From Bacteroidota bacterium (GTDB lineage Bacteria > Bacteroidota > Bacteroidia > Chitinophagales > Chitinophagaceae), in contig JAUZOD010000003.1 in NCBI GenBank assembly GCA_030706635.1, positions 1-64,000 on the forward strand: a DNA stretch of 64,000 bases. Reading direction: 5' to 3'. The first letter of the stretch is position 1, and each line of letters begins with the position of its first letter. This document shows, one piece after another, positions 13,504-62,725 of this stretch. The translations under genes were made by a program, and so were the position numbers. A model generated the notes under the pieces. It was not told where the DNA came from, did not search any database, and saw only the letters and a program-made list of their open reading frames with translations.

Positions 13504-13591
13504 GGTGTATGGTATATGGTGGATAGTGGATGGACCGCAAGTGCAAATTCGCAATAGAAATCCATTCACTATCCACCATATACCATACACC
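13504..13591. repeat. Inverted-repeat element, copy A (heptamer arms)
   Basis: The 31-base arms 13504-13534 and 13561-13591 are complementary at 30 of 31 positions, with a 26-base loop. Each arm is a run of 7-base units (GTGTATG, GTATATG, GTGGATA, GTGGATG). The loop holds GTGCAAATTCGCAATAGA, which matches the core seen in copies B, C and D. It lies 28 bases past the stop of the WYL regulator gene. The size and near-perfection of the stem make it an obvious RNA or DNA hairpin. Confidence 0.85.
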
Positions 13592-13618
13592 ACCTACCAG
13601 AATAGCACGCCCCGGGGA

Positions 13619-14308
13619 CTAAAAATCCACCGGGAGCTGCTTTACATACTCACTCATCTCCATATGCTTCTTCCGGGTAAAGTCTTCCTCCGTGCAGCGG
13701 AGCCGGAGGATGCGGGAAACGCGAAAATCGCGGTAATCTTTTTTCACATGGCACCATCCGATCAGGTGCCAGTTAAAGGCATAAAAAACCAGTCCGATGG
13801 GTTCGGCCTTTCTCTTCGAAATTTCCTTCTGAAGGTTCGTATATTCTATTTCTACCACGCGGCGACCGGAGATGGCCTGCTGAATGCTGGCCAGATATTC
13901 AAAATGCTGGATAAAACAGGGCGGCGCCTGGAACTTGATGCTGTTGGCCAGCAGTTCGATGGAATCCTTCTGCGTTGAGCGGAGCACGGATTTCACTTTG
14001 GTGAGCGCATTGGAATAATGCTGCTGGATGGATTTATCTGCAAAACCCGAAACAATGGCCTCCATTAATAATAAGGCGTTTGCTTCTTCCGTACTGAAAG
14101 AAACCGGCTGCAGAAAATAACCATTCACAATAAAATAGCCGCGGTAAGGCTCGAAGCTTACGGGAATTCCCTGTTCGTTGAGGGCCTTGACGTCCCGGTA
14201 TACCGACCTTATGCTGATGTGAAATTTCTCTGCGATCTTTTCTCCAGTGACGTATTTTTTAGACTGGAGCAGCGTAAGGATGCCGAATAATCTGTCAATA
14301 CGGTTCAT
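13619..14308 (-). CDS. HTH/WYL-domain transcriptional regulator (YafY-like)
   Basis: The 229-residue protein begins with an HTH_11 winged helix (residues 1-60, RLFGILTLLQSKKYVTGEKI then HISIRSVYRDVKALNEQG). A WYL domain follows (about 135-210), here with the YAFNWHLIGWCH strand and the FRVSRILRL strand. WYL domains bind ligands or nucleic acid ends and often control DNA-damage or defence genes. Divergent recA is its nearest neighbour, 259 bases away. A palindrome TACCA-N6-TGGTA overlaps its promoter and is a likely autoregulatory site. The HTH/WYL call is firm; target genes are unknown. Confidence 0.92.
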   Translation of the reverse strand: MNRIDRLFGILTLLQSKKYVTGEKIAEKFHISIRSVYRDVKALNEQGIPVSFEPYRGYFIVNGYFLQPVSFSTEEANALLLMEAIVSGFADKSIQQHYSNALTKVKSVLRSTQKDSIELLANSIKFQAPPCFIQHFEYLASIQQAISGRRVVEIEYTNLQKEISKRKAEPIGLVFYAFNWHLIGWCHVKKDYRDFRVSRILRLRCTEEDFTRKKHMEMSEYVKQLPVDF

Positions 14309-14313
14309 GTTTT

Positions 14314-14335
14314 CAAAATTACCACATTAATGGTA
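14314..14335 (-). promoter_or_regulatory. Promoter and palindromic operator of the WYL regulator
   Basis: On the minus strand TAATTTTG (14321-14314) matches the -7 consensus and ends five bases before the ATG at 14308, so the transcript would be leaderless or nearly so. The palindrome TACCACATTAATGGTA (14320-14335) overlaps the promoter, a good position for repression by the regulator itself. Confidence 0.55.
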
Positions 14336-14430
14336 TTGACTTGTGACGCGGAATTTCTTCTCTTTACCAAATGAAAGCGGCTGAAGGCTGTTTTCAGAAC
14401 CAGTTCTTTAGATCAGAATTCTCTCATGTC

Positions 14431-14458
14431 GGCCCCGTCTTTTGCCGGGGCCTTTTTT
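14431..14458 (+). terminator. Rho-independent terminator upstream of recA
   Basis: GGCCCCG (14431-14437) and CGGGGCC (14446-14452) form a perfect 7-bp stem with an 8-base loop, followed by TTTTTT. No plus-strand gene lies upstream for 1.5 kb, so it must end either a small untranslated transcript starting after 14340 or a long recA leader (attenuator). No promoter for such a transcript is evident. Confidence 0.75.
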
Positions 14459-14474
14459 AAACTAAACCAAAAAT

Positions 14475-14530
14475 ATTAGTGAATTATTACTAATTTTATT
14501 AGTGTGAATAAAATATTTCTCTTAGCTTTG
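14475..14530 (+). promoter_or_regulatory. recA promoter with ATTAGT repeats
   Basis: TAGCTTTG at 14523-14530 fits the -7 consensus, 38 bases before the recA ATG. Just upstream, ATTAGT (14475-14480) and ACTAAT (14489-14494) form an inverted pair with an 8-base gap, and ATTAGT recurs at 14498-14503. Such spaced repeats upstream of recA could bind a damage-responsive regulator; this is inference, as no LexA box is recognisable. Confidence 0.5.
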
Positions 14531-14567
14531 GGGAATCCACTACTTTAAATGATTAAATAAAGAAAAA

Positions 14568-15581
14568 ATGTCAAACGCAGACTCAAACACAGAAAAACTG
14601 AAGGCGCTTAAGCTGACCATAGATAAAATAGACAAGGACTACGGTAAAGGAAGTGTGATGATGATGAATGAAAAAAGCAGCGAACCGATGGAGGTTGTCT
14701 CAACCGGATCCATCGGGCTGGATGTAGCCCTGGGTATCGGCGGCCTGCCCCGCGGACGGGTCATCGAAATCTACGGTCCGGAGTCTTCCGGTAAAACAAC
14801 GATCGCGACCCACGTGATCGCGGAAGCCCAGAAGAAAGGTGGCATGTGCGCCATCATTGATGCCGAACATGCTTTCGACAGCAACTATGCCCGCAAGCTG
14901 GGTGTGGATGTGGATAGCCTTTTGATCTCCCAGCCGGATTATGGTGAGCAGGCCCTCGAAATCGCAGACCGCCTGATCCTGTCCGGTGCGCTGGACGTGG
15001 TCGTAATTGATTCCGTTGCCGCCCTGGTACCGAAAAGTGAACTGGAAGGCGAAATGGGAGATAGTAAGATGGGGCTTCATGCCAGGCTGATGTCGCAGGC
15101 CCTGCGTAAGCTGACGGCAACGATCAGCAAAACCAATACCATTTGCATTTTCATCAACCAGCTCCGGGAAAAGATCGGGGTGATGTTCGGAAATCCCGAA
15201 ACCACTACGGGTGGAAACGCGCTGAAGTTTTACGCTTCCGTTCGGCTGGATATCCGGCGGATGGCCCAGATAAAAGACGGTGAAGAAGCCATTGGAAACC
15301 ACGTGAAAGTAAAGGTCGTGAAAAACAAAGTAGCCCCTCCTTTCCGCAGTGCAGAATTTGACATAATCTTCGGAGAAGGAATTTCAAAAATGGGTGAGGT
15401 GATTGATATGGGTGTTGAGCTCGGCATCGTGCAAAAAAGCGGAAGCTGGTTCAGCTATGGTACCGATAAACTCGGGCAGGGAAGGGATGCCGTAAGGCAA
15501 TTGTTGACGGATAATCCCGAACTGGCCACTGAAATCGAAGGAAAGATTCGTGCAAAAATCAAAGAAATGCAGGAAGCTTAA
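14568..15581 (+). CDS. recA: RecA recombinase
   Basis: The 337-residue protein is a standard RecA. It has Walker [10 protein letters not shown] at 70-78, the [12 protein letters not shown] Walker B strand, the MSQALRKL helix, the L1 loop around [10 protein letters not shown], the [20 protein letters not shown] loop 2 region and the C-terminal lobe. It forms filaments on single-stranded DNA and drives strand exchange and repair. It is monocistronic, with its own promoter (14523) and a hairpin region downstream. The C terminus is short and only mildly acidic. Confidence 0.98.
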
Positions 15582-15624
15582 CGATATACTATTTGCTTGG
15601 GTTGGTAAGTACGGAGGCTGTCTG

Positions 15625-15648
15625 AAAGGATGGCCTTTGTTGTTTTTT
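15625..15648 (+). terminator. Weak terminator after recA
   Basis: AAAGG (15625-15629) pairs with CCTTT (15634-15638) across a 4-base loop and is followed by GTTGTTTTTT. The stem is short, so the call is tentative. Confidence 0.4.
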
Positions 15649-15680
15649 GGGAGTTCGTCAGCCTGGAAAATAAACCCATA

Positions 15681-15716
15681 AAAAAAGGGGTCAGAATAAA
15701 AATTCAACCCCGTTTT
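15681..15716. terminator. Bidirectional hairpin between recA and the T9SS gene
   Basis: AAAAAAGGGGT (15681-15691) faces ACCCCGTTTT (15707-15716). The A-tract on one side and the T-tract on the other allow termination on both strands, which fits its place between two convergent genes. Confidence 0.5.
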
Positions 15717-15841
15717 AAAATCCAATATCCTATGAAAAACCGAGGTAAAGATAGTAGTAAAGACTGAGATGTGCAACAGGTATCGCTAAATATATTATCA
15801 GACAATTATCCGATTTTCCTGTTGAAAACAGGCTGAAAAAA

Positions 15842-16462
15842 TCAGTTTTTGATGAGTTGCTCGGAAATAAACGTGCCATTTTCCTTGTCCGTGGCCTTCA
15901 GGATGTAATTGCCCTTTTGCAGTGTTGAAACATTAATTATCTGCATACCCGCGTTCACATCCTGATTGAACCAGACTATACCATAAGCATCCATCACCTG
16001 GATAAGCAGCGGATGAGAGCTGCGAACGATAAGTAGCTTATCAACCGGGTTTGGATAAAATCGAAAATCCAACCTTGAAATCACATTCGCACTGACCGTT
16101 TTGGAATAAATGACATTTCCACTTCCTCCCGAAACCCGAATCCGGTAATATATCATTCCGGTGCCGGGCGAATTGTCGGTAATGGAAAAAGTAGTATCCG
16201 GATCAGCAGAACCACTTCCGATGGCACTGAGGGTTTCAAAATGGATTCCATCGGCGCTTTTTTCCACGATAAAATAATAATCCGGCCTCACGACGGATGC
16301 CGCCCATTTCAAAACGGCCATACCGTTTCGCTCGTTCACGTTAAAATTCGAAAATTGAATGGAACTATCCTTTCCGGAAAAGTGGGTAAGATTTTCAGAA
16401 GTCTGACACACCGCGGCACAACAGCACATGGCCGTGACCAGCGTCAACCAAAGTTTGCTCAT
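15842..16462 (-). CDS. Secreted protein with type IX secretion sorting domain
   Basis: The 206-residue protein has an N-terminal signal peptide (residues 1-19), a fibronectin-III-like segment (about 35-125, LKWAASVVRPDYYFIVEKS and YYRIRVSG), and a C-terminal type A sorting domain (about 130-206). The domain is marked by FRFYPNPVDKLLIVRS, the middle DAYGIVW strand, and the QKGNYILKAT and SEQLIKN ends. Such tails direct proteins through the gliding/T9SS machinery to the cell surface. Here almost nothing lies between the FN3 segment and the tail, so it is a minimal cargo, perhaps a small adhesin. No enzymatic domain is seen. Confidence 0.9.
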   Translation of the reverse strand: MSKLWLTLVTAMCCCAAVCQTSENLTHFSGKDSSIQFSNFNVNERNGMAVLKWAASVVRPDYYFIVEKSADGIHFETLSAIGSGSADPDTTFSITDNSPGTGMIYYRIRVSGGSGNVIYSKTVSANVISRLDFRFYPNPVDKLLIVRSSHPLLIQVMDAYGIVWFNQDVNAGMQIINVSTLQKGNYILKATDKENGTFISEQLIKN

Positions 16463-16628
16463 GAGTTAGTGAAAATAATGGGGATAACATGTGAACAAAT
16501 TCCATGCCGTTCCGTGAACTATTTGAAAATAACGCGAATCTACTCTGCCGGGTTGCCTGTTTCTCAAACAGGTTGATGTGCTCCCGAACAGGCAATCTCC
16601 TATCTTGCAGGCTACCAAATGACCCCTC

Positions 16629-17081
16629 ATGAATATTCATAAAATGGGCAGCAACAAGCGTATTGCCCTGATTGCGCACGACAATAAAAAAGCCGAACTC
16701 ATCGAATGGGCAATCTATAATAAGACCGCCCTTTCCCGTCACCGGCTTTTTGCCACCGGCACTACCGGGAAAATGCTGGAGAAAGCCCTGGACCAGACCA
16801 TCACCAAATACATGAGCGGTCCGCTCGGCGGCGACCAGCAGATCGGAGCCCGTATCGCCGAAAGAAAGATAGACGTCCTTATTTTTTTCTGGGATCCGAT
16901 GGAGGCCCAGCCTCATGATCCGGATATCAAGGCGCTGCTCCGTCTGGGTGTTGTATGGAATATACCCTTTGCCTGTGACCGGTCAACGGCCGATTTCCTG
17001 CTCACTTCCCCACTCATGCACCAGGATTATGATGTGATTCAACCGGATTATTCGGTGTATTTGAAGAGGCCGCCGAGATAG
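16629..17081 (+). CDS. mgsA: Methylglyoxal synthase
   Basis: The 150-residue protein matches MgsA throughout: RIALIAHDNKK at the N terminus, LFATGTTGKMLE with the phosphate-binding Thr residues, GPLGGDQQIGA with the catalytic Asp, and DVLIFFWDPMEAQPHDPDI. It converts dihydroxyacetone phosphate to methylglyoxal, a bypass of lower glycolysis when sugar phosphates pile up. The second ATG at 16644 (MGSNKR) is an equally good start. The stop codon at 17079-17081 is directly followed by repeat copy B. Confidence 0.96.
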   Translation: MNIHKMGSNKRIALIAHDNKKAELIEWAIYNKTALSRHRLFATGTTGKMLEKALDQTITKYMSGPLGGDQQIGARIAERKIDVLIFFWDPMEAQPHDPDIKALLRLGVVWNIPFACDRSTADFLLTSPLMHQDYDVIQPDYSVYLKRPPR

Positions 17082-17083
17082 GA

Positions 17084-17169
17084 GATGACGGATGACAAAT
17101 GACGGTTGACCGACTTCAGGTGCGAATCCGCAATAAAAGTCGGTCATCCGTCATCCGTCAACCGTCAAC
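17084..17169. repeat. Inverted-repeat element, copy B (heptamer arms)
   Basis: The 32-base arms 17084-17115 and 17138-17169 pair at 27 positions. The arms are runs of the 7-mer GATGACG/GTTGACC and, on the other side, CCGTCAT/CCGTCAA. The 22-base loop is the best copy of the shared core, GTGCGAATCCGCAATA. The element starts two bases after the mgsA stop codon. Confidence 0.85.
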
Positions 17170-17241
17170 CTTAAGAAGGGCTGGTTCGATAATTGAAAGG
17201 CTGAATGGGCTTAGGTGCTCATTGATTACTTAAATTCCCGA

Positions 17242-19695
17242 ATGAAAAAAGTCTTAAAATACAGCCTTCGGTTTCTGGCGGTTATTCTGGGTCTTCTCCT
17301 TTTACTTTCTTTTGGTGGCTGGATATATCTAAGACGGCATAAGGCGGAAGTGATCAGTTATATTAAAACCGAATCCGCCAAACGGCTTAACGGCGAAGTT
17401 TCTATAGGCGAGATCAGCGTCAGCCTATTCCATACCTTCCCCAAAATTTCCGTCTCCCTCGAAAATGTGAGTATCCGGGACAGTCTATGGACACAACATC
17501 ACCACGACCTGCTCAACGCTCCGAAGGTTTTCGCCAGCCTGGATATTTTTGAACTAATCACTGGTCACTTCCGGGTGAGCAAGATCATCCTGGAGAATGC
17601 GCTCGTCTATCTTTATACCGATTCAGCCGGATATGACAATACCTCCATTTTCCGGAAGCGTCCGCCGGCAAGCAATGGGCCCCCGGAACCGGTCCATTAT
17701 CCAAACCTGGAGATCCGCAATTCAAACCTGGTGGTGGAGAAAAAAAACAAACACAAACTATTCTCTTTTGATATTCACCGGCTTCTCTGTCGCGTAAAGA
17801 CCCAACCGGACCAGCCCCAGCTTGACCTGGATATCAATCTTCAGGCCCAGGTGACAAGTCTGATCTTTAACCAGGAAAAGGGAAGTTTTGCAGAAGGGAA
17901 AATGGCCCGGGGGAAATTTCTGATTCATTTTAACCCAGATAGCAAAATCCTGCAGTTCGATAAAATCAAACTCCTTATAGATAAACAGATTTTTACATCC
18001 AGCGGCAAGTTCTTTCTGGCTGAAGTACCAGCCCTGTTTACCCTTTCCCTGGAAACAGAAAACCTGGATCTCAAAAAGGCATCTTCGTTGCTGACCAGGA
18101 ATATCAGTTCCAAGCTCAACCAATATGGTATTTCCGGTGAAATCAACCGCGTCAAATGCAGCCTCGACGGGACGGATACTGCCTATAAGACGCCGCTGAT
18201 CCGTATCCAAGCTTCGGTCAAAAACAGGTCCGTTCACACCCCTGTTATGGATTTAGAAAGAGCTTCCTTTGAAGGGTTCTTCACCAATGAATATATCAAA
18301 GGCATGGGTCACGATGATGAAAATTCCGTTCTTCGATTCACGGGTCTGAACGCCAACTGGCAGGATATGGATTTCCATTCTGATTCCATGATCATCCAAA
18401 ACCTTATCCTGCCTTCCATAAAATGCAACGTGAGATCCGTCTTCCGGCTGGATGGTCTCAATAGCCTGCTGGGTGACCGAACATTCAGCTTCAGCAAGGG
18501 TGGAGGCAAAGTGGATCTCCAATACAGCGGCCCCCTTGTGGATGGGTCCACTGTTCCCAAAACGCTAAACGGTAGTTTCCTTATGGACTCGGCAGCATTT
18601 ACCTACCTGCCCCGGAATTTCAATCTGCTGAATGGCAAAGGAAAAATCCGTTTTGCCGCCAGCGATATGTTCATCGAGGATCTTCATGTAAATACCGGAA
18701 ACACTGACCTGCTGATGAACGGAAGCATGAAGAACTTATTATCACTGATCGACAGGAATCCCGGTCAGCTCACGCTCGCCTGGGATATCCGGAGCAACAG
18801 GATCAATCTGAACGATTTTAAAGCCTTCCTGAAAAAAAGAACGGGCACGGTTTCCAAAAAGAAAAAGAAAGCCATGCTTTCAGAAACCCTTTACCAAATC
18901 ACCCGCCTGATGGTGACCAGCAGTATGGAACTCAACCTGCAGGCCAAGCAACTTAATTATAAAAAATTCACGGCAACGGGTATCCGCACCACCATGGAGC
19001 TCAACGACGATGCCATCACTATGAAAAGTCTTGTGCTTGAGCATGCCGGCGGATCCATTGAAGCACACGGGTCCCTGAGGAATGAAACGAATTCCAATCC
19101 CTTTTCCTTTAAAGCGACCCTGAAACATGTGGACGTAAGTAAAGTATTCGATGCTTTCAATAATTTCGGTCAGCAAGCCATCGCGGCCAAAAACATCCAG
19201 GGCTCCCTTAATGCCGGCATAGATCTGAAAGGAGAAGTAACCGAAAAAGTATTACTGATCCCAGACAGCACCCGGGGTCAGATAAATTTTAACCTGGAGA
19301 ATGGCCGGCTCATTGACTTTGAACCGGTCCAGAAGATTTCCGAGACGGTTTTTAAAAAACGCAACTTTTCGGATATCCAGTTTGCGGATCTCCACGACCT
19401 GTTTACCATATCCGGCAACAGGATTACCATCGACCGCATGGAAATCCGCTCTACGGTCATGACCATGTTCGTAGAGGGTACTTATGATGTGAAAAAGGGA
19501 GCGGACCTCAGCATCCAGGTGCCGCTCAGCAACCTTAAAAATAAACATGCCGATGTTGTACCGGAAAATCAGGGAATCGACAGCAAAACTGGCGTAAGCG
19601 CCAAACTGAGGGCAAAAACCGGGGATGATCACAAGCTGCACATCAGCTGGGACCCTTTCAATAAAGCCTCCCGCAAAATGAAGAAACATAAATAA
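17242..19695 (+). CDS. AsmA-family inner-membrane protein
   Basis: The 817-residue protein begins with a basic stretch and one membrane helix (about 7-28, RFLAVILGLLLLLSFGGWIYL), followed by the RRHKAEVISYIKTESAKRLNGEVSIGE start of an AsmA domain. It then has a long series of beta strands of the kind that form the lipid-conducting groove of AsmA/TamB/DUF3971 proteins, and an AsmA C-terminal region near 640-790 (LKNMQGSLNA-like and NLENGRLIDFEPVQKIS). I placed the start at ATG 17242; the GTG at 17215 adds nine residues with no merit. Relatives help lipid transport to, or homeostasis of, the outer membrane. Confidence 0.85.
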   Translation: MKKVLKYSLRFLAVILGLLLLLSFGGWIYLRRHKAEVISYIKTESAKRLNGEVSIGEISVSLFHTFPKISVSLENVSIRDSLWTQHHHDLLNAPKVFASLDIFELITGHFRVSKIILENALVYLYTDSAGYDNTSIFRKRPPASNGPPEPVHYPNLEIRNSNLVVEKKNKHKLFSFDIHRLLCRVKTQPDQPQLDLDINLQAQVTSLIFNQEKGSFAEGKMARGKFLIHFNPDSKILQFDKIKLLIDKQIFTSSGKFFLAEVPALFTLSLETENLDLKKASSLLTRNISSKLNQYGISGEINRVKCSLDGTDTAYKTPLIRIQASVKNRSVHTPVMDLERASFEGFFTNEYIKGMGHDDENSVLRFTGLNANWQDMDFHSDSMIIQNLILPSIKCNVRSVFRLDGLNSLLGDRTFSFSKGGGKVDLQYSGPLVDGSTVPKTLNGSFLMDSAAFTYLPRNFNLLNGKGKIRFAASDMFIEDLHVNTGNTDLLMNGSMKNLLSLIDRNPGQLTLAWDIRSNRINLNDFKAFLKKRTGTVSKKKKKAMLSETLYQITRLMVTSSMELNLQAKQLNYKKFTATGIRTTMELNDDAITMKSLVLEHAGGSIEAHGSLRNETNSNPFSFKATLKHVDVSKVFDAFNNFGQQAIAAKNIQGSLNAGIDLKGEVTEKVLLIPDSTRGQINFNLENGRLIDFEPVQKISETVFKKRNFSDIQFADLHDLFTISGNRITIDRMEIRSTVMTMFVEGTYDVKKGADLSIQVPLSNLKNKHADVVPENQGIDSKTGVSAKLRAKTGDDHKLHISWDPFNKASRKMKKHK

Positions 19696-19762
19696 ATTTC
19701 TCGCTGTCTACCCGTTCCTCCCAAGGCCCTTCAAGAGGCAGAACAAGTCATTCCATGCATGT

Positions 19763-24723: not shown

Positions 24724-24847
24724 GTATATATTAACACAGTATTCTGAAATAAACTTCAAACTATCGGGTTTTAGAATAGTCTTACCTTGGAAATGATCCC
24801 TTCACGGGGTCAAAAAACTAATGAATTTGGAATACAAACTATTACAC

Positions 24848-27211
24848 ATGAAAAAGCTCTCTGTGAAACTCATCATGTTAGCCTCTATGATGCTGATTTT
24901 CAGCTTCAGCAGAGCGGCTGACGACCAATGGCCTAAACTGGTTACTGCCTCTGACGGAACCCTGATCAAGGTTTACCAGCCGACGCCGGAATCTTTTGAG
25001 GGGAATACCCTTAAGTTCCGGTCCGCCATTTCTGTTACAGAAAGGGGCAGTTCCGAACCCGTATTTGGTACGTTCTGGGCAACCTCCAAGGTAGAGACAG
25101 ACCGGGACAACCGCCAGGTCATGATCAACACGCTCAACACGACCGACATAAAAATCCCGGCCATCAGCGACCAGAACGAGATCGATTTTATTGATGACGC
25201 ACTGGAAACACAATTTCCGCAAGTGCTTGGTTCTATGTCCCTGGACGATATTCTCACCTCCCTGGATCAAACAAGGCAGGAAACCAAGCTTTCCCAAAAT
25301 ATTTCCACAACGCCGCCCAAAGTGATATTTACCACGCAGCCCTCTATGCTGGTGGTTATTGACGGCGAGCCCAGGTTGAAGCAAAATCCGGATTGGAAAA
25401 TGGACGTGGTAGTAAATACGCCTTTTACCATTGTCAAAAACAATGAAGATGGGCAGTATTACCTCTATGGAGCGAAGCAATGGTATATAGCGCCGGAAGC
25501 CACCGGACCTTACCGTTATGCCAATGGCCGGGTTCCTGCTAATATCAGCAATATTGAACAACAGATCATCAGCAAAGAACAACAGAATAGTACGAACAGT
25601 GCTAATGCAGGCAATAACAATCCCGGTCAGAATAATGCGCAGGCAAACGACCAGGAGTCAACCATTATGAATATTGTGGTCAGTACCGTTCCTGCAGAAC
25701 TGATACAATCCAGGGGGGAACCAAATTTTACACCTATCCAGGGAACATCCCTGCTTTATGTGAATAATTCGGTCAACGATATCTTCATGGATGAGCATTC
25801 CCAGCAATATTTTGTGCTAATCTCCGGAAGGTGGTATCAGGCCAAGACCATGACGGGCAATAACTGGAAATATATCCCGGCTGATCAGTTGCCTTTGGAC
25901 TTTTCGAAAATCCCTCCGGGTTCTCCGAAAGATAACGTGCTTGCCAGCGTGGCGGGTACCGACGCAGCAAAAGATGCCGTCATGGATGCAGAGATCCCCC
26001 AAACCGCCAAGGTTGACCGGAATACGGCAACTACTCAGGTGATTTATGATGGTCGGCCCAAGTTTACCGATATTGACGGTACGAATCTTCAGTATGCCGT
26101 GAATACCTCTTCAACGGTTTTGCGTGCGGACAACGGCAGGTTTTACACGGTGGATAATGGTGTATGGTTTGTTTCGGACAACGCTACCGGCCCCTGGGCC
26201 GTCAGTACGGACCGGCCAGACGAAGTGGATCGTATTCCACCGAATTCTCCAGCTTACAATACAAAATATGTTTATATCTATGATGTGGCTCCGGATTATG
26301 TGTACATGGGGTATACTCCGGGATATCTGAATAGTTATATATACGGGCCCACCGTGGTTTATGGAACCGGATTTTATTATGATCCATGGTTTGGAAATTA
26401 TTATTATCCCAGACCCTGGTCATGGGGCTTTAACTTCGGCTACAATCCCTTTTGTGGCTGGAGCTTTGGATTGGGATACGACTGGGGTTGGTTCAATTCG
26501 GGATTCGGGTATGGATATGGATTTTATGGCGGTTATCATGGTTATGGCTGTGGCTGGTGGGGTCCTTCCTTTTATCATCCGGCTTATTGGGGTGGATGGC
26601 ATGGTGGCGCAAGACCTTATGGGTTTTACGGAAGATCCTTCAGCATGCGGAATAATATCCGGGTAAATTCTTCCAACAATATCTACAGAAATCGCGGCGG
26701 TGTGGTCACCCGCAGCAATATACGTCCTGGTGGCGGTTATAACAGGGCCGGAAATAACAGGCCTTATTCAACCAGGCCGGGGGGAAGCTTTAACAATCCC
26801 CGCCCGAATGCAGTCGGTTCAAGACCGGTTAACGGGGGAAATTATAATGGCACCAATGGCAGACCCGGAGGAAACATCTATTCGGACCGTCAGGGAAATG
26901 TTTACCAGCGCAGTCAACAGGGCCAATGGCAACAAAGGCAAAACCGCAGTTGGTCTCCGGCAAACAACGCAAGACCGGAAGTGATTCAGAATCTAAATCG
27001 TCAGCAGGTTATGCGTGACCGCGGACAAATACGTACGCAGAACTTTGAAAGAGCCAGGCCTTCTGCGCCCAGTGGCGGAGGTTTCCGTCCTTCAGGAGGT
27101 GGTGGAAGTTTCCGTCCTTCTGGAGGCGGTGGCGGCAGACCATCCGGAGGCGGCGGCTCGGCACCCAGATCTTCCGGCGGTGGAGGGGGCGGCAGCAGAA
27201 GAGGAAGATAA
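24848..27211 (+). CDS. Large exported Gly/Tyr/Trp-rich repeat protein
   Basis: The 787-residue protein has a signal peptide (1-23), an N-terminal alpha/beta region, then three related modules of about 70 residues. Each has a pattern like T-x-P-x-L-I-x-x-x-GEP-x-F, a YYVxxGxWY strand and a T-GPW or TG-x-W-x-Y end (about 165-235, 280-355, 410-480). Next comes a strikingly Tyr/Gly/Trp-rich stretch (about 500-600) and finally an Arg/Asn/Gly-rich tail ending in many SGGGG and RPSGGG copies. Automated annotation tends to call such proteins carbohydrate-binding family V/XII; no enzyme motif is visible. It is probably surface or periplasmic. The start at 24848 gives the signal peptide; an ATG at 24821 adds nine residues. 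Confidence 0.8.
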   Translation: MKKLSVKLIMLASMMLIFSFSRAADDQWPKLVTASDGTLIKVYQPTPESFEGNTLKFRSAISVTERGSSEPVFGTFWATSKVETDRDNRQVMINTLNTTDIKIPAISDQNEIDFIDDALETQFPQVLGSMSLDDILTSLDQTRQETKLSQNISTTPPKVIFTTQPSMLVVIDGEPRLKQNPDWKMDVVVNTPFTIVKNNEDGQYYLYGAKQWYIAPEATGPYRYANGRVPANISNIEQQIISKEQQNSTNSANAGNNNPGQNNAQANDQESTIMNIVVSTVPAELIQSRGEPNFTPIQGTSLLYVNNSVNDIFMDEHSQQYFVLISGRWYQAKTMTGNNWKYIPADQLPLDFSKIPPGSPKDNVLASVAGTDAAKDAVMDAEIPQTAKVDRNTATTQVIYDGRPKFTDIDGTNLQYAVNTSSTVLRADNGRFYTVDNGVWFVSDNATGPWAVSTDRPDEVDRIPPNSPAYNTKYVYIYDVAPDYVYMGYTPGYLNSYIYGPTVVYGTGFYYDPWFGNYYYPRPWSWGFNFGYNPFCGWSFGLGYDWGWFNSGFGYGYGFYGGYHGYGCGWWGPSFYHPAYWGGWHGGARPYGFYGRSFSMRNNIRVNSSNNIYRNRGGVVTRSNIRPGGGYNRAGNNRPYSTRPGGSFNNPRPNAVGSRPVNGGNYNGTNGRPGGNIYSDRQGNVYQRSQQGQWQQRQNRSWSPANNARPEVIQNLNRQQVMRDRGQIRTQNFERARPSAPSGGGFRPSGGGGSFRPSGGGGGRPSGGGGSAPRSSGGGGGGSRRGR

Positions 27212-31196: not shown

Positions 31197-31586
31197 ATGA
31201 AAGTGAAAATCAACAAGGATGCTTTAGGGATCGGCGCCTCCATTGCCTGTGCGATCCATTGCGCTATTCTACCGCTCTTTCTGAGCAGTTTTTCCCTGTT
31301 GGGAATCAACATCATCCACAACAAACTGTTTGAATACGGAATGATCTTATTTGCTTTTGTGGTAGGATTGATGGCGCTCAGGCATGGTTTTGTGCAGCAT
31401 CACCGGAGTTATGTTCCATTTATGCTTTTTTCAGCCGGAATGCTCTTTTTGGCAGCCAAACAGTACTGGCATTCCTATGAATTGCTTTTGCTCCCTTTTG
31501 CCGTGATTTTGATCGTGACCGCGCATGTGTGCAATCTGAAGTTTAAGCGGGTAGCTGAAGGGCATGCAGCGAGCTGTTCCGGTTGA
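31197..31586 (+). CDS. MerC-domain membrane protein
   Basis: The 129-residue protein has four membrane helices and the Cys pair of the family in IACAIHCAILP (C18 and C22), as in the inner-membrane mercury carrier MerC. In Bacteroidota this family is common without mer operons and its substrate is unclear; the divergent SCO gene suggests a metal context. The last residues include SCSG, and the stop codon TGA at 31584-31586 lies within the left arm of repeat copy C. Confidence 0.88.
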   Translation: MKVKINKDALGIGASIACAIHCAILPLFLSSFSLLGINIIHNKLFEYGMILFAFVVGLMALRHGFVQHHRSYVPFMLFSAGMLFLAAKQYWHSYELLLLPFAVILIVTAHVCNLKFKRVAEGHAASCSG

Positions 31587-31655
31587 CCGTTGACTGACTT
31601 CAGGCGCGGATTCGCAATAAAAGACCGTCAACGGTCAGCCGTCATCCGCCAACTC
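31581..31655. repeat. Inverted-repeat element, copy C (heptamer arms)
   Basis: The left arm 31581-31599 (GGTTGACCGTTGACTGACT) pairs with part of the right arm 31622-31655, which continues with further CCGTCAA/CCGTCAT-like units. Between them lies the shared core, here as GCGCGGATTCGCAATAAA. The left arm contains the stop codon of the merC gene. Confidence 0.75.
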
Positions 31656-32397: not shown

Positions 32398-33051
32398 TTG
32401 CAGCAGATCGTCCAGCAATTCCTCTCGGATATTCATCAAACCACCTGGATCGAATTTATTGCAGTGATTACAGGCATCGCGAGTGTGATCTATTCCCGGA
32501 GGGAAAACATTCTCGTTTATCCGGTGGGTATGGTGAGTACAGGGATTTTTATCTACCTCTACCTGAAACACGGCCTGTATGCAGATGCCTCCGTAAATTT
32601 TTATTATACCGTCATGAGCATCGTCGGATGGTATATGTGGTCGGGAAAAGCAGGAAGCAGCCCCTCCCGTCATCCGTCATCCGTCATCCGTCATCCAAAA
32701 AAAGGAGCTGCACTAAAAATTACCGTATCCACATCCAAAGAATGGCGAGATACGCTGATTTTCTTTTTTGTCTGCTGGGCAGTCCTCTATTTAGTTTTGA
32801 AACATTTTACAGACAGTACGGTTCCGGTTGCAGACAGCTTTACGTCCGGCGCCGCATTTACCGGTATGTGGCTGATGAATAAAAAGAAACTGGAAAACTG
32901 GACCTGGTGGGTCATTACCAACCTGGCATCCATTCCGCTCAATTTTTACAAACACCTTGTTTTTACGAGCTTTCAATATGTCGTATTCCTGATTCTTGCC
33001 ATTATGGGCTATATTACCTGGAGAAAAAAGATCCTGCATGCAGGCGCCTAA
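32398..33051 (+). CDS. pnuC: Nicotinamide riboside transporter PnuC
   Basis: The 217-residue protein has the seven-helix plan of PnuC with the DIHQTTWIEFIAVITGIASV start, NILVYPVGMVSTGIF, YADASVNFYYTVMSIVGWYMW, and the WWVITNLASIPLNFYKHL substrate helix. The start is TTG at 32398, supported by alignment of the N terminus to the family and by lack of another start. A loop near residues 88-102 (SSPSRHPSSVIRHPKK) is made by four tandem CCGTCAT units in the DNA, which is not usual for the family. It overlaps nadR by 14 bases, so uptake and phosphorylation of nicotinamide riboside are coupled. A TAACTTTC at 32369 is a weak promoter candidate. Confidence 0.93.
   Translation: MQQIVQQFLSDIHQTTWIEFIAVITGIASVIYSRRENILVYPVGMVSTGIFIYLYLKHGLYADASVNFYYTVMSIVGWYMWSGKAGSSPSRHPSSVIRHPKKGAALKITVSTSKEWRDTLIFFFVCWAVLYLVLKHFTDSTVPVADSFTSGAAFTGMWLMNKKKLENWTWWVITNLASIPLNFYKHLVFTSFQYVVFLILAIMGYITWRKKILHAGA
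32667..32694. repeat. Four tandem copies of CCGTCAT inside pnuC
   Basis: The 7-base unit CCGTCAT occurs four times without change. The unit length is not a multiple of three, so gain or loss of one copy would shift the pnuC frame. The same unit makes up the arms of repeat copies B, C and D. Confidence 0.9.
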
Positions 33052-41234: not shown

Positions 41235-41591
41235 ATGAAAAAAGTATACTTTCTTTCCACCTGCAGCACCTGTCAGAAGATTATCAGGGAAACGGGGCTT
41301 GAAAAAAAGGGATTCATTTTTCAGAATATCAAAGTGGAAAACATCAGCCCGGAACAGCTCGACGAAATGAAAGACCTCGTCGGGTCCTACGAAGCCTTGT
41401 TCAGCAGGAAATCGTTAAAGTACCGGTCCATGGGATTAAAAGATGTAAAGCTCACTGAAAAAGATTACCGCAGGCTGATCCTGCAGGAATATACATTTTT
41501 GAAGCGCCCGGTGGTGATTTTGGGAAAGAAGATCTTCGCCGGCAGTGAAAAGAAAACGGTGGAGTTAATGTGGAAATGTGCTGATGTGTAA
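41235..41591 (+). CDS. ArsC/Spx-family thioredoxin-fold protein
   Basis: The 118-residue protein has the ArsC/Spx fold with C10-ST-C13 near the N terminus (FLSTCSTCQK) and the KRPVVILGKKIFAG C-terminal strand pair with the conserved Arg. It may be an arsenate reductase-like or Spx-like redox protein; arsenate genes are absent nearby, so a regulatory or thiol role is as likely. The last residues (WKCADV) and the stop codon are encoded by the left arm of repeat copy E, so the natural C terminus may have been altered. Confidence 0.85.
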   Translation: MKKVYFLSTCSTCQKIIRETGLEKKGFIFQNIKVENISPEQLDEMKDLVGSYEALFSRKSLKYRSMGLKDVKLTEKDYRRLILQEYTFLKRPVVILGKKIFAGSEKKTVELMWKCADV

Positions 41592-41690
41592 ATGGGTAAA
41601 TGGGTTGTAATGCGGATTGCAAAACTGGTCAATTCGATTTCGTCAAGGTATCAACGGGCAAATCATTTACACGTTTACACATCAGCACAT

Positions 41691-41701
<11 letters not shown>
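41565..41701. repeat. Inverted-repeat element, copy E (octamer arms), shared by two stop codons
   Basis: The roughly 41-base arms 41565-41605 and 41661-41701 pair with about four mismatches. Each arm is made of 8-base units (AATGTGTA, AATGTGCT, GATGTGTA). The left arm encodes the end of the ArsC-like gene and the right arm encodes the end of the convergent pcrA gene; both genes stop with GTG-TAA supplied by the repeat. Read on the minus strand, the loop contains TGCAATCCGCATTA, close to the core of copies A-D. Confidence 0.8.
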
Positions 41702-44060
<2,359 letters not shown>

Positions 44061-57505: not shown

Positions 57506-57522
57506 AAGTGGGCAAAAAATAC

Positions 57523-58554: not shown

Positions 58555-58598
58555 GATGCGTTTTACTTTTTACAATACCTGCTTTCCCGTATCCCTGG

Positions 58599-59381
58599 TT
58601 ATTCCGGCAATTGCCCGTCAATCCATTTAAGCAACTCATCATGGATCTTACCATTGGTCGCCACAATCTGGGGCTGATACAACGAATACCGCGATCCGGT
58701 AAAATCGGTTACCCTGCCGCCAGCCTCTTCCACAATTAAGAATCCGGCAGAGCTGTCCCAGGCGTTCAGCTTATGTTCAAAAAATCCATCAAAACGACCC
58801 GCCGCCACCCAGCAGAGATCCATTGCGGCAGAGCCCAGCCGACGGACCGGAACACCTTTCCGGATCAGGCGGGAAAACACGTCCAGGGGACCATTCGGCT
58901 GATCCAGATATGTATAGGGAAACCCCGTAACCAGGCAGGCTTTTGCGACCTCCGTTTCCTCCGACACCTTAATCGATTGGTCGTTCAGCGTGGCGCCGTA
59001 TCCTTTTTGAGCAAAATAGAATTCATTAAAAAACGGGTTATAGACAGCGCCCATCAGCATTTCACCCTCGTGCTCTAGGCCAATGGATACACAGCAGAGC
59101 GGCAGGCCGTGCGCAAAATTAACCGTGCCATCCAGCGGGTCAATAATCCACTTGTATTTTGAGTCCGAAGGCATGTCCCCGGATTCTTCGCTGAGAATAT
59201 AATGATCCGGAAATTCTAAACGGATAATGTCCATAATAATTTTCTCCGCCGCATGATCCGCCTCCGTAACGAGATTGTTTACGCCTTCCTTATTGGAAAT
59301 CTGAAACCGGGTACCGTAATATTGCTGGATCACTTTGCCCGCGGCTTCAGCCGCTTTGATCAGAGTTTGTTTCAATAACAT
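58599..59381 (-). CDS. suhB: Inositol-monophosphatase-family protein
   Basis: The 260-residue enzyme has the metal-binding EADHAAEKIIMD, the EESGD motif, WIIDPLDGTVNFAHGLP and WDSSAGFLIVEEAGG. These are the Li-sensitive phosphatase motifs of the IMPase/SuhB family, with activity on myo-inositol phosphates or related substrates. The -7 element TATCTTTG (59393-59386) abuts the ATG, so the mRNA is likely leaderless. It heads a minus-strand run with thiL. Confidence 0.93.
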   Translation of the reverse strand: MLLKQTLIKAAEAAGKVIQQYYGTRFQISNKEGVNNLVTEADHAAEKIIMDIIRLEFPDHYILSEESGDMPSDSKYKWIIDPLDGTVNFAHGLPLCCVSIGLEHEGEMLMGAVYNPFFNEFYFAQKGYGATLNDQSIKVSEETEVAKACLVTGFPYTYLDQPNGPLDVFSRLIRKGVPVRRLGSAAMDLCWVAAGRFDGFFEHKLNAWDSSAGFLIVEEAGGRVTDFTGSRYSLYQPQIVATNGKIHDELLKWIDGQLPE

Positions 59382-59385
59382 GGCG

Positions 59386-59393
59386 CAAAGATA
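59386..59393 (-). promoter_or_regulatory. -7 element of the inositol monophosphatase gene, leaderless
   Basis: TATCTTTG on the minus strand is followed after four bases (CGCC) by the ATG at 59381. Confidence 0.6.
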
Positions 59394-59491
59394 ATAAAGG
59401 GGCGGCAGCCTTATGAACAGGAATGGACTTAACCGGATGTATTTTGCCGGCTACCTGAAAAAATCGTACTTCGTGTTAATCTTTATCCAGG

Positions 59492-60652
59492 ATGATTCTT
59501 TCTGTTGTCATCGTTAATTTCAATGTAAGATATTTTCTGGAACAATGCCTTCATTCCATAAAAAAGGCGATTGGCCAGAGTGCGCTCCTTCAGGGAAAGA
59601 CCGAAGTCTTTATTGTGGATAATGCCTCTTCCGATGGAAGCATCGCCTTTCTGGAGCCCCTGTACCCCGGGTTTCGTTTTATTTCAAATACTGAAAACAA
59701 GGGATTTGCCAAATCAAACAACCAGGCTTTGGCGGACTGTTCCGGGAAGTATATATTATTTCTCAATCCGGACACCGTTCTGGCAGAAGACAGCCTGGAT
59801 CAGTGCCTTTCATTTTTTGAGGCGCACCCGAATGCAGGGGCGGTGGGCGTGAGGATGATTGACGGCTGCGGCCGTTTTTTAAAAGAATCCAAACGCGGAT
59901 TCCCTACGGCCACCGCTTCTTTCTTTAAAATGAGTAAACTGGCCGCCGTCTTTCCATCTTCCCGTTTTTTTGCTGCCTACTACGCCGGCCACCTGGATCC
60001 AACCAGCAATCATCCGGTGGAAATCTTGTCCGGCGCATTTATGATGGTGCGGAAAGACGTGCTGGATTTGACGGGTGGTTTCGATGAACAGTTTTTTATG
60101 TACGCAGAAGATATCGACCTCTGTTACCGCATCAGCAAAGCGGGATTCCAGAATTATTACCTTGCTTCCACCACCATCATTCATTTTAAGGGCGAAAGTA
60201 CACCCAGGGACATTCGCTATGTCCATCAGTTTTACCTTGCCATGAAGCAGTTCATGAAAAAACACTTTCATGGATCATCTTCTTCCCTGCTGCTTTATTT
60301 CCTGAACCTGGGGGTTGCTTTGCGACAGCGTCTCGCTGCGGCCGCGGTTGCGTTCCAAAAAAAATCCATTCCGGCAGCATATGCTGGTCCTGTTTTTATA
60401 AAGGTCGCTCCGGAAAATCTATCGGAGGTGAAAGAAGCCTTGCAGCATTCGGGGATAGGCATTACCGATAAAGAAAACACTGCAGGAGAATGGCTGTTTT
60501 TTGAAGGCGGTGATAATTCCCTGAAATGCATCATCCGGGAAATGGATAAAGCATCCCGCAGGATATCCTGTTTTATTCATGGCTCCGGAACGCACGCCGC
60601 CGTCGGTGACGGCCCTGGTGGTATCAAAACAATTCTTTTACCCGTTTCGTAA
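59492..60652 (+). CDS. Family 2 glycosyltransferase
   Basis: The 386-residue protein has a GT-A domain starting SVVIVNFNVRYFLEQCL, FIVDNASSDGS, LFLNPDTVL and GGFDEQFFMYAEDIDLCYR, as in rhamnosyl- or N-acetylglucosaminyl-type transferases acting on surface polysaccharides. A C-terminal 100-residue part (about 280-386) is not of a known type. No polysaccharide cluster lies around it. It is divergent from the inositol monophosphatase gene; the promoter region is 110 bases. Confidence 0.92.
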   Translation: MILSVVIVNFNVRYFLEQCLHSIKKAIGQSALLQGKTEVFIVDNASSDGSIAFLEPLYPGFRFISNTENKGFAKSNNQALADCSGKYILFLNPDTVLAEDSLDQCLSFFEAHPNAGAVGVRMIDGCGRFLKESKRGFPTATASFFKMSKLAAVFPSSRFFAAYYAGHLDPTSNHPVEILSGAFMMVRKDVLDLTGGFDEQFFMYAEDIDLCYRISKAGFQNYYLASTTIIHFKGESTPRDIRYVHQFYLAMKQFMKKHFHGSSSSLLLYFLNLGVALRQRLAAAAVAFQKKSIPAAYAGPVFIKVAPENLSEVKEALQHSGIGITDKENTAGEWLFFEGGDNSLKCIIREMDKASRRISCFIHGSGTHAAVGDGPGGIKTILLPVS

Positions 60653-60686
60653 ATAAATGACCTTTGTAAACCATTAAATAAAGGGT

Positions 60687-62054
60687 ATGCCGAATCTGAA
60701 GGATATTAAAAATCTGTTGCAGAACAACCGCATTACTGAGTTTGTAAAACTCAATAAACTTTCGTCCCGGGACATTATTGAGTTTACCAACCGGTACACC
60801 AATTGGGCAGGTAAGCTGTTCCAGCATCTGGATGTAAAACATGCAGCACGTGTTTTTAAATTCATACGGCGCAAAAAACAGGAGATCATCATTAAATCGC
60901 TTCCTGATGAAAAAGCGGCCGAACTGCTGAATGCGCTGCAGCCCGATGACAGAACCGCCTTCCTGGGTATGCTTCCGGGTAGTGCCGTAAAAGAGTTATT
61001 AAAAGTCCTTTCTCCGGAAACCCGCGCGGAAACACTGAAGCTGCTGGGATATCCCGAAGGATCCGTCGGTCGTTTGATGACTCCCGATTATATTGCTATT
61101 AAAGCAACCAACACGGTACGGGAAGTACTGGATATGATCCGCAAACTCGGACAGGTAACCGACACACTCAATTTTCTCTTTGTAATAGATGATCACGGGG
61201 TATTGATTGACGATATCAATCTCAAAGAATTTTTAATTGTTGATCCATCCCTGTCCGTTGAAAAACTCATGGACCGCCAGTTCCTGGCCCTGTCAGTAAA
61301 TGATGCGCAGACCGAAACGATTACCATTTTCCGGCAAAACAGCCGGTTTGCACTACCGGTAGTCAACGAGGCGGGTGTGCTGCTGGGGGTGGTAACAGCC
61401 GATGATGTGTTGCGACTGGCTGAAAAGGAAAATACCCGCGAGATCCAGCGGATAGGGGGTTCTGAAGCATTGGATGAAGCCTACACTTCCATTTCTTTTG
61501 GCCATCTGGTGAAGAAGCGGGCCGGCTGGCTTGTCATTCTGTTCCTGGGCGAGATGCTAACGGCCACTGCTATGGGCTTTTTTGAAGGAGAAATTAGCAA
61601 AGCCGTCGTACTAGCCTTGTTTATTCCGCTCATTATCTCCAGCGGTGGTAATTCCGGATCGCAGGCATCCTCCATCATTATCCGGGCCATGGCGCTGGGA
61701 GAAGTTAAATTCCGCGACTGGCTATACGTCATGCGTAAAGAAATCATGTCCGGCGTGGTGCTCGGTTCTATCCTGGGCGCAGTGGGCTTTCTGCGCATTG
61801 CACTCTGGCAACGGTTTCATTTTTATAATTATGGGGAAAGCTGGTTTAAGGTTGCGTTAACGGTTGCCTTTTCTCTGCTGGGTGTTGTGCTGTGGGGAAC
61901 GATATCGGGTTCGATGTTACCCATCCTGTTGAAAAAACTGGGGGCCGACCCGGCCGCTTCTTCTGCTCCATTCGTGGCAACTCTGGTAGACGTGACCGGA
62001 TTGATCATCTACTTTTCGGTGGCCGTATTTATACTTAAAGGCAGTCTGCTCTAA
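60687..62054 (+). CDS. mgtE: Magnesium transporter MgtE
   Basis: The 455-residue protein has an N-terminal MgtE domain (about 30-130), two CBS domains (about 130-260) and five membrane helices (about 280-455) with SSGGNSGSQASSIIIRAMALGE and PAASSAPFVATLVDVTGLIIYF, the pore motifs. Magnesium bound to the N and CBS domains gates the channel. It is single-gene with a near-consensus -7 (GACCTTTG, about 60659-60666). Confidence 0.96.
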   Translation: MPNLKDIKNLLQNNRITEFVKLNKLSSRDIIEFTNRYTNWAGKLFQHLDVKHAARVFKFIRRKKQEIIIKSLPDEKAAELLNALQPDDRTAFLGMLPGSAVKELLKVLSPETRAETLKLLGYPEGSVGRLMTPDYIAIKATNTVREVLDMIRKLGQVTDTLNFLFVIDDHGVLIDDINLKEFLIVDPSLSVEKLMDRQFLALSVNDAQTETITIFRQNSRFALPVVNEAGVLLGVVTADDVLRLAEKENTREIQRIGGSEALDEAYTSISFGHLVKKRAGWLVILFLGEMLTATAMGFFEGEISKAVVLALFIPLIISSGGNSGSQASSIIIRAMALGEVKFRDWLYVMRKEIMSGVVLGSILGAVGFLRIALWQRFHFYNYGESWFKVALTVAFSLLGVVLWGTISGSMLPILLKKLGADPAASSAPFVATLVDVTGLIIYFSVAVFILKGSLL

Positions 62055-62060
62055 GGAGAT

Positions 62061-62567
62061 TTATTTGCTTTTATAAACAGGAACCGTACTGCAGGGTTCT
62101 CCATACATAATGCTTTTAACTACCGGACGGAGCAGGCGGGTGATTTCCAGGTAAGCAAACTCTCCTATTGGTTTTTCGCCGCATCCCTTCACCACAACCC
62201 TTTTGTCTTTATATTCTGACGGATCAATGGCTCCGATCCTTTTCAATAATATTTGCCGGAGCACCATTTGTTCATCCCCCTGAATAACGTCTTTGGCCAC
62301 GGGCTGAAGATAGCTGGCTACCAGCATATAGGCCCATACCGGGATAACGGCATCGGCGGAACAGTAAACCCCTACGATCTGATCTTTATATTGATTCCAG
62401 TCTGTACTCTGAAGTGCAGTACGAAAATCTTTTTCCTTAAGGATAAGCTCCATAAAAAGGAAAGATTTCAGATCAAACATCACGATCTTTTCTTCCGGGA
62501 AGTATTTCTCCAGATCCAGGGTCAGCAGGGCGCTCTGACTTATCTTATTGACAATCTCTTCCTCCAT
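62061..62567 (-). CDS. DUF2480 family protein
   Basis: The 168-residue protein starts EEEIVNKISQSALLTLDLEKYFPEEK and contains WNQYKDQIVGVYCSADAVIPVWAYM and KDKRVVVKGCGEKPIGEFAY, the features of the DUF2480 family of Bacteroidota, with conserved Cys residues in VYCSAD and VKGCG. Function is unknown. It has its own -7 element at 62594-62587 and is convergent with mgtE (6 bases between stop codons). Confidence 0.88.
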   Translation of the reverse strand: MEEEIVNKISQSALLTLDLEKYFPEEKIVMFDLKSFLFMELILKEKDFRTALQSTDWNQYKDQIVGVYCSADAVIPVWAYMLVASYLQPVAKDVIQGDEQMVLRQILLKRIGAIDPSEYKDKRVVVKGCGEKPIGEFAYLEITRLLRPVVKSIMYGEPCSTVPVYKSK

Positions 62568-62586
62568 AATATGCCTGTATCACCCG

Positions 62587-62594
62587 CAAAGGTA
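62587..62594 (-). promoter_or_regulatory. -7 element of the DUF2480 gene
   Basis: TACCTTTG on the minus strand matches the consensus and ends 19 bases before the ATG at 62567. Repeat copy D begins only ten bases further upstream. Confidence 0.55.
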
Positions 62595-62603
62595 AGTAGT
62601 TCC

Positions 62604-62725
62604 GGGGTTGACCGTTGACGGATTTCAGGTGTGAATCCGCAATTGACATCCGTCATCATGCTGCCCGATTTAAGTTTGAAGCCTGCACAGAAAGTCCGTC
62701 AACGGTCATCCGTCAACCGTCAACT
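62604..62725. repeat. Inverted-repeat element, copy D (heptamer arms, with insertion)
   Basis: The left arm 62606-62623 (GGTTGACCGTTGACGGAT) pairs both with ATCCGTC just across the core and with the units at 62694-62725 (GTCAACGGTCATCCGTCAAC). About 38 bases of unrelated sequence (62656-62693) split the right arm. The core reads GTGTGAATCCGCAATT. The right arm abuts the stop codon of the foldase gene at 62724-62726. Confidence 0.7.

What the first reader, a model, noticed from the sequence alone, without database searches (positions are those of the whole stretch)
13504..62725. A family of inverted repeats with a shared core and 7- or 8-base tandem arms
Copies A (13504-13591), B (17084-17169), C (31581-31655) and D (62604-62725) share a core resembling GTGCGAATCCGCAATA; copy E (41565-41701) shows a related core on the minus strand. 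In each copy the flanking arms are long, self-complementary runs of degenerate 7-base units (8-base in E). The arm sequence differs from copy to copy, for example GTGGATA-type units in A and GTTGACG-type units in B, while the core is kept. Arms that change in concert while a core stays fixed point to repair-like copying or transposition of the hairpin, or selection on its structure. I do not know a named family with this design. No transposase is in the window.
Basis: seen in the sequence. Interest (0 to 1): 0.78.

Follow-up and report, generated by a model that had tools for sequence, protein, structure and literature searches.

The report
Repeat-built DNA hairpins at gene ends
A bacterium of the Chitinophagaceae group carries at least 88 DNA hairpins, mostly just after the ends of genes, whose two arms are built of 7-letter repeats that change together while a small centre is kept, a design for which we found no described family.

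Summary
Of 33 genus genomes searched, only two others carry it in similar number. E belongs to a separate 8-nt-unit family (AATGTGNN) with other loops, abundant in the same three genomes.

At 18 orthologous sites in two species, an element's arms resemble each other more (2.6 mismatches per 21) than the ortholog's arms (4.9); in 3 of 7 pairs with clear core orientation the core is inverted. Arm homogenisation with spacer inversion is the published signature of template switching between inverted repeats; exchange among copies could look alike.

Elements hug stop codons (63 of 88 within 20 bp of a gene 3' end). The arms are polarised: read inward from either side, 63 of 88 hold stops in all three frames. 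No RAYT-type transposase match was found in the three genomes, no target-duplication signal and no U-tract enrichment. Best filed as a new variant of dispersed extragenic palindrome; function is inferred, not shown.

The parts
13504..13591 (+). Copy A: 7-nt arms of the T type (GTGTATG GTATATG GTGGATA GTGGATG), core GTGCAAATTCGCAAT; 27 bp past the 3' end of the minus-strand ORF 13619-14308
   Evidence: RNA MFE -58.6 kcal/mol, z -13.8; a hairpin with partly different units lies at the orthologous site in G173
17084..17169 (+). Copy B: arms of the C type (GATGACG GATGACA AATGACG GTTGACC), core GTGCGAATCCGCAAT; starts 2 bp after the stop of the plus-strand ORF 16629-17081
   Evidence: the orthologous G173 site holds a different palindrome
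31581..31655 (+). Copy C: arms GGTTGACC GTTGACT / GACCGTCAACGGTCAGCC, core GCGCGGATTCGCAAT; the ORF 31197-31586 (not verified as a gene) ends on the TGA of the first unit
   Evidence: G173 keeps arms around another loop, G153 shows one arm only
62604..62725 (+). Copy D: as A-C, about 47 nt longer between core and 3' arm; the 3' arm meets the stop codon of the minus-strand ORF 62724-63995
41565..41701 (.). Copy E: separate family, 8-nt units (AATGTGNN), loop of about 61 nt without the A-D core; the two convergent ORFs 41235-41591 and 41691-44060 both end on a TAA inside its arms
32667..32696 (.). Lone tandem array of CCGTCAT (4.3 copies, 100% match): same unit type, no facing arm or core

Best explanation
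The A-D elements are a non-autonomous, clade-restricted family of dispersed palindromes that live at gene 3' ends. Each is two mirrored tracts of degenerate 7-nt tandem units around a core of about 30 nt. Shown: copy number, restriction among the genomes searched, arm complementarity, concerted arm change at orthologous sites, core inversion, gene-end position, inward all-frame stops. Inferred: (1) tandem units allow slippage and misaligned annealing; (2) template switching between the two arms, and exchange with other copies, rewrites both arms together and sometimes flips the core; (3) position and polarity are filtered by selection, because a ribosome entering from either side meets a stop at once, so the element can sit on or just behind a stop codon as an end cap, possibly also as an mRNA 3' hairpin. 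E-type 8-nt hairpins are a second family of the same design.
For: Arms: 3.09 mismatches per 21 within an element against 5.07 (sd 0.19) with 3' arms reshuffled among 77 full-length copies. Orthologs: 2.64 within against 4.88 between, smaller within at 15 of 18 sites, Wilcoxon p 0.0005; core inverted in 3 of 7 clear pairs. Mismatches G.T+T.G 74 against A.C+C.A 68. Arm homogenisation and spacer inversion are described outcomes of template switching (PMC8604942, passages; PMC8794818, abstract and outline). Gene ends: 63 of 88 within 20 bp of a facing 3' end against a mean of 40 (max 51) in 300 random placements; 5' ends 9 against 39. Stops: inward 279 against 126 (sd 8) by composition, three frames in 63 of 88; outward 15, three frames in 0 of 88; 25 of 98 facing ORF ends lie inside an arm.
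Against: Template switching is inferred, not observed; exchange between copies, or recombination between the inverted arms, would also flip cores, and exchange fits whole-class swaps of units (L280 vs C46:44084) better. Only 18 of 62 G173 elements could be compared as pairs; 35 could not be placed because only stretches near G000 copies had been fetched. In 11 of the 18 pairs core orientation was unclear or not scorable. Shared sites suggest selection on the hairpin, which the copying model does not need. The stop excess is carried by a recurring unit, so copies are not independent; in the other tandem sets stops are near composition (60 vs 60.3; 19 vs 14.6; 30 vs 23.4), though still inward-biased. 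On the transcribed strand of single-gene cases G.U-type mismatches are somewhat commoner than A.C-type (32 vs 21). The ORF caller was crude.
Confidence: 0.55

Rival explanations
1. Intrinsic terminators or mRNA 3'-end protecting hairpins: RNA structure is selected and compensatory substitutions keep the arms paired; the units are incidental.
For: Gene 3'-end position; strong RNA folds (z -13.8, -9.2, -4.0, -3.5, -10.2 for A-E); sites shared between species; 9 sites without an A-D hit in G000 still score higher for hairpins than 146 other gaps (Mann-Whitney p 0.002).
Against: No U-tract enrichment on the gene-facing side (TTTT in 15 of 98 facing vs 8 of 78 other ends); no clear G.U excess; the core has no orientation to the gene (24 same, 22 opposite) and flips; structure selection alone does not call for 7- or 8-nt periodic arms.
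Confidence: 0.3
2. Exchange of whole elements between copies (ectopic gene conversion), without copying between the arms of one element.
For: Complete unit-class swaps at orthologous sites (L280, L282, L215); arms are mostly all-C or all-T type (40 and 15 of 77).
Against: Needs donors that are already complementary; unit orders such as GTAGATG GTATATG GTGGATG mirrored without error look copy-specific (donors elsewhere in the genome were not searched for).
Confidence: 0.35
3. A REP/REPIN or MITE mobilised by a transposase or other nuclease.
For: Dispersed palindromes with a shared core; CGTC-tagged REPs are reported to lack a dedicated transposase and to occur in Bacteroidetes among five phyla (PMC3733652, passages). 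One pair of copies (C98:31555 and C98:32270) flanks a NUMOD4 gene with a sub-threshold HNH match.
Against: No PF01797 match in G000, G173 or G153 while 23 of 33 genus genomes have one; no flanking duplication signal; the NUMOD4 gene has a homolog in 28 of 33 genus genomes, mostly one copy, including genomes without the element, and none was found in G153, so it does not track copy number. Other mobile families were not searched.
Confidence: 0.08

Closest known systems
Repetitive extragenic palindromes (REP, incl. GTAG- and CGTC-tagged; REPIN with RAYT)
   Same: Short, palindromic, intergenic, many copies per genome, clade-restricted
   Different: Arms are tandem 7-nt units that differ between copies; no tetranucleotide tag was established; no RAYT match in the copy-rich genomes
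TAACTGA heptamer direct repeats (Beggiatoaceae, Cyanobacteria, some Bacteroidetes; PMC4679880, passages)
   Same: Intergenic 7-nt tandem units, variant units within an array
   Different: Direct repeats, in the main genome described mostly upstream of start codons, one main unit; here inverted, at gene ends, several units, with a core
Quasipalindromes rewritten by template switching (PMC8604942 passages, PMC8794818 abstract)
   Same: Arm homogenisation and spacer inversion
   Different: A mutational process at single sites, not a dispersed family with tandem-unit arms
Intrinsic transcription terminators
   Same: Stable hairpin just after stop codons
   Different: No U-tract enrichment; inward all-frame stops; periodic arms

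Membership tests
REP/REPIN | Short palindrome, many intergenic copies | tested here: met
   88 places, none inside an ORF of 100 aa or more as called here
REP/REPIN | RAYT (PF01797) in the genome | tested here: not met
   0 matches in G000 (99.9% complete), G173 (86%) and G153 (80%); 23 of 33 genus genomes positive
REP/REPIN | Fixed GTAG or CGTC tag beside the stem | tested here: inconclusive
   CGTC occurs only within the repeated arm unit CGTCAAC and reads CATC in T-type copies; no comparison with the published families was made
MITE | Target-site duplication | tested here: inconclusive
   flanking direct repeats equal shuffled pairs (mean 3.55 vs 3.51), but arm edges are uncertain and no empty site was seen
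Intrinsic terminator | Hairpin followed by a U-tract | tested here: not met
   TTTT within 12 nt in 15 of 98 facing and 8 of 78 non-facing ends
Intrinsic terminator | RNA 3' ends map to the hairpin | not testable with these tools
   no transcript data
TAACTGA-type heptamer repeats | Unit TAACTGA as direct repeats upstream of start codons | tested here: not met
   other units, inverted, gene 5' ends avoided
Template-switch quasipalindrome | Arm homogenisation at orthologous sites | tested here: met
   15 of 18 sites, 1 tie
Template-switch quasipalindrome | Spacer inversion | tested here: met
   3 of 7 pairs with clear core orientation; 11 of 18 pairs not clear
Rfam RNA family | Match above gathering score | tested here: not met
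   0 matches in the window

The most novel reading that the evidence does not exclude
Several Chitinophagaceae lineages maintain a class of gene-end caps: palindromes whose arms are tandem 7- or 8-nt units (lengths not divisible by three), polarised so that ribosomes from either side meet stops in every frame. Their letters are interchangeable: one site can carry units of different families in different species, and the units are rewritten in concert by polymerase template switching with a preferred 7- or 8-nt step.
Probability: 0.25. Interest if true: 0.82.

Novelty: new variant of a known kind. Interest (0 to 1): 0.62.

Why it matters
How hairpin stems stay paired while their sequence changes is an old question. 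Here one genome offers nearly 90 natural replicates, many with orthologs, in which arms turn over in blocks and the spacer flips, so template switching, exchange between copies and structure selection could be told apart with a few strain genomes. If the end-cap reading holds, it adds a kind of gene end made of all-frame stops plus a hairpin. It also warns that covarying stems found by RNA searches need not mean RNA selection.

Tried and rejected
RAYT-driven REP: disfavoured, no PF01797 match in the three copy-rich genomes. A NUMOD4 gene flanked by two copies: rejected as driver, it is present in 28 of 33 genus genomes whether or not they carry the element. Loss of SbcCD as the cause: SbcD (TIGR00619) has no match in G000, G173 or G153, but only 2 of 33 genus genomes pass the cut-off, so it does not discriminate (phylum sample 33 of 90 over the cut-off). 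Canonical terminator: no U-tract enrichment. RNA-strand selection by wobble: no clear excess. Target duplications: no signal. E's core as homologous to A-D: not supported. Named contigs with the core pattern: of 4, two Chitinophagaceae MAGs carry arms; the Planctomycetaceae and Rhizobium hits do not. Rfam: nothing. A first ortholog table (10 pairs, 1.95 within vs 3.5 between) is superseded, where L209 proved to face another site and L202 could not be placed. Searches for a prior description or for the mechanism listed none of this family; they cover one open-access library.

Full report
What is there. The five hairpins exist at the stated coordinates. A-D share a core; their arms are 7-nt tandem units, E's are 8-nt. 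The common plan of A-D is: 7-nt units, GACTT, CAGG, a TGCG-AATT-CGCA mini-hairpin, ATAA, AAGTC, mirrored 7-nt units. On 24 copies the pairing shows 52 cells changed on both sides against 21.8 in shuffles and a covariation score of 0.236 against 0.122 (0 of 500 shuffles reach either; related copies inflate this), and it collapses when slid by 1-3 columns. The unit arms are well paired, but three of the five pairs next to the core are broken in 8 to 14 of 24 rows, and the pair just outside them in 13.

Copy number and spread. With the covariance model the own genome, 4.58 Mb in 162 contigs, gives 150 strand-counted hits that collapse to 88 places; 150 of 2054 candidates were scored, so more may exist. 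In the genus, 11 of 33 genomes have a hit at 1e-4: G000, G173 and G153 with 150, 149 and 109, eight others with 2-54 of lower score. In the family, 28 of 147 genomes have a hit (33 candidates scored per genome); the 21 loci that I printed mostly show, by eye, 7-nt-unit arms around loops without the A-D core. Two Chitinophagaceae MAGs in the named collection carry core and arms.

Other families of the same design. A search of 550 kb of the own genome (window plus stretches fetched around A-D copies) finds 89 strong hairpins: 61 overlap A-D places, 58 of them with period-7 arms; of 26 others between genes, 12 have period-7 and 10 period-8 arms. The pattern of three 8-nt units AATGTGNN in a row matches 140 times in G000, 97 in G153, 85 in G173, 19, 7 and 5 in G170, G160 and G166, and 0 in the other 27 genus genomes; overlapping matches within one array count apart, and the reversed control gives 0, 2 and 3 in the first three. 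So the 7- and 8-nt families abound in the same three genomes. In 240 kb from ten other family genomes, 10 of 14 hairpins have period-7 arms with quite different units (CGTGAGN, AATTGAA, TTAGGAA); all 10 come from four genomes that already had model hits (G004, G021, G009, G109), none from the other six. In 571 kb of other genus genomes, largely chosen by synteny with the window, 6 of 15 have period 7 or 8 (one of the 15 spans a run of N). In 57 kb of G173 and G153, 2 of 2. Beyond the family, 0 of 2 in 160 kb.

Concerted arms. Within an element the arms differ at 3.09 of 21 positions; pairing arms of different copies gives 5.07, sd 0.19, minimum 4.49 in 1000 shuffles (77 full-length copies). 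For 62 G173 elements I sought the same site in the fetched G000 stretches: 18 sites carry an A-D element in both species, 9 were found without an A-D hit in G000, 35 could not be placed. At the 18 sites the mean arm mismatch is 2.64 within and 4.88 between species; within is smaller at 15, equal at 1, larger at 2. Some sites have exchanged whole unit sets in both arms (L280 against C46:44084, L282 against C138:7019). Core orientation was clear in both partners in 7 pairs: 4 same, 3 inverted; in the other 11 it was not clear or not scorable. Of the 9 sites without a hit, by eye, G000 holds collapsed palindromes (facing L200, L203), weak A-D-like elements (L204, L271, L292), a hairpin of another 7-nt family (L261), an 8-nt array (L209), a long-loop heptad hairpin (L293) and at one (L262) nothing that my scorer recognises; their hairpin scores exceed those of 146 other gaps (Mann-Whitney p 0.002; 5 of 9 against 20 of 146 at score 13 or more). 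At copy B's site G173 holds a different palindrome, arms of about 64 nt with a loop over 200 nt, found with a looser loop limit. At copy C's site G153 shows one arm only.

DNA or RNA level. G.T and T.G mismatches in arms (74) hardly exceed A.C and C.A (68) on the core strand; on the transcribed strand of elements with a single facing gene it is 32 against 21, a weak lean to RNA. Core flips do not matter for arm pairing and so are not explained by structure selection. Published template switching gives both arm homogenisation and spacer inversion (PMC8604942, passages) and has been proposed to create and maintain RNA stems (PMC8794818, abstract and outline). Exchange among copies, or recombination between arms, is not excluded, and several of these may act.

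Position and polarity. With a simple ORF caller (at least 100 aa), 63 of 88 elements lie within 20 bp of a gene 3' end facing them, against a mean of 40 and a maximum of 51 in 300 random placements in gaps of the same stretches; 9 of 88 lie that close to a gene 5' end against 39. The caller makes errors: it missed the ORF 16629-17081 that ends 2 bp before B. Elements stand convergent 26, tandem 48, divergent 14, against 48, 128 and 70 for all gaps of 60 bp or more. In other genera, of 27 model-hit loci 13 gave a hairpin by the detector: 8 of 13 within 20 bp of a 3' end, 2 of a 5' end. The core has no orientation towards a single facing gene (24 same, 22 opposite), and no U-tract follows preferentially on the gene-facing side, so by sequence these are not ordinary terminators. 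Reading inward, the arms of 88 elements hold 279 stop codons (126, sd 8, after shuffling letters), in all three frames in 63, none in 1; outward 15, three frames in 0, no stop in 75. Because the element is a palindrome, both neighbours read the same inward strand. Of 98 facing ORF ends 25 lie inside an arm; in E both convergent ORFs end on TAA codons of the 8-nt units. The other tandem sets are inward-biased too (60 vs 13, 19 vs 3, 30 vs 13), but not clearly beyond what their composition gives.

Cause. No PF01797 match is in the three copy-rich genomes, and 23 of 33 genus genomes have one; G173 and G153 are 86% and 80% complete. Ten ORFs were scanned with Pfam, nine of them lying between close copy pairs: eight hit housekeeping-type or common families (RecA, Hsp90, Radical SAM and others), one none, and one, between C98:31555 and C98:32270, is a NUMOD4 protein with a sub-threshold HNH match. 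Its homologs are in 28 of 33 genus genomes, mostly once, including genomes without the element, so it is not the driver. No flanking duplication signal. SbcD has no match in the three genomes, but neither does it pass the cut-off in most of the genus. I see no dedicated mobiliser among the families tested, and favour replication-linked copying acting on seeds that spread in the ancestry of these three species; how the seeds spread is open.

Known or new. REPs share the genomic habit but not the arms, and the RAYT link fails here. TAACTGA repeats share the 7-nt tandem habit but are direct and mostly upstream of start codons in the genome described (PMC4679880, passages). A 2026 survey of perfect inverted repeats reports enrichment at gene starts and ends in prokaryotes; a word search of it for Bacteroid- and Chitinophag- found no occurrence (PMC13155455, passages). 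Literature searches listed no description of such a family. I file it as a new variant of extragenic palindrome.

Noticed in passing
window 14568-15581: recA (Pfam RecA) lies between copies A and B.
   Followed up: partly
window 32667-32696: A perfect tandem array of CCGTCAT without a facing arm; may be a seed or a remnant of a hairpin.
   Followed up: partly
window 27072-27132: A 27-nt tandem repeat (2.3 copies) near the 3' end of the ORF 24821-27211.
   Followed up: no
L180 15960-16425 (G173, site of copy B); a similar string in L080 near 13286-13492: A palindrome with arms of about 64 nt built of longer units that contain CCGGAGC; possibly another dispersed hairpin family.
   Followed up: partly
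L188 3725-3889, L236 8885-9053, L237 1643-1770 (G170): Very long hairpins (arms 52-58 nt) in a same-genus genome, one with clear 8-nt periodic arms.
   Followed up: no
L097 4349-4397 and L115 383-486 (G000): Core-less short palindromes where G173 has full elements: apparent collapse of the hairpin centre, or the reverse.
   Followed up: partly
L067 2950-3752 (G000 C98): A conserved NUMOD4 gene sits tightly between two copies; it is widespread in the genus without the element.
   Followed up: yes
G116 (family member): Ten Y1 transposase matches with the same score listed, which looks like a recent IS200/IS605-type burst.
   Followed up: no
genus: SbcD (TIGR00619) passes the cut-off in only 2 of 33 genus genomes.
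   Followed up: partly
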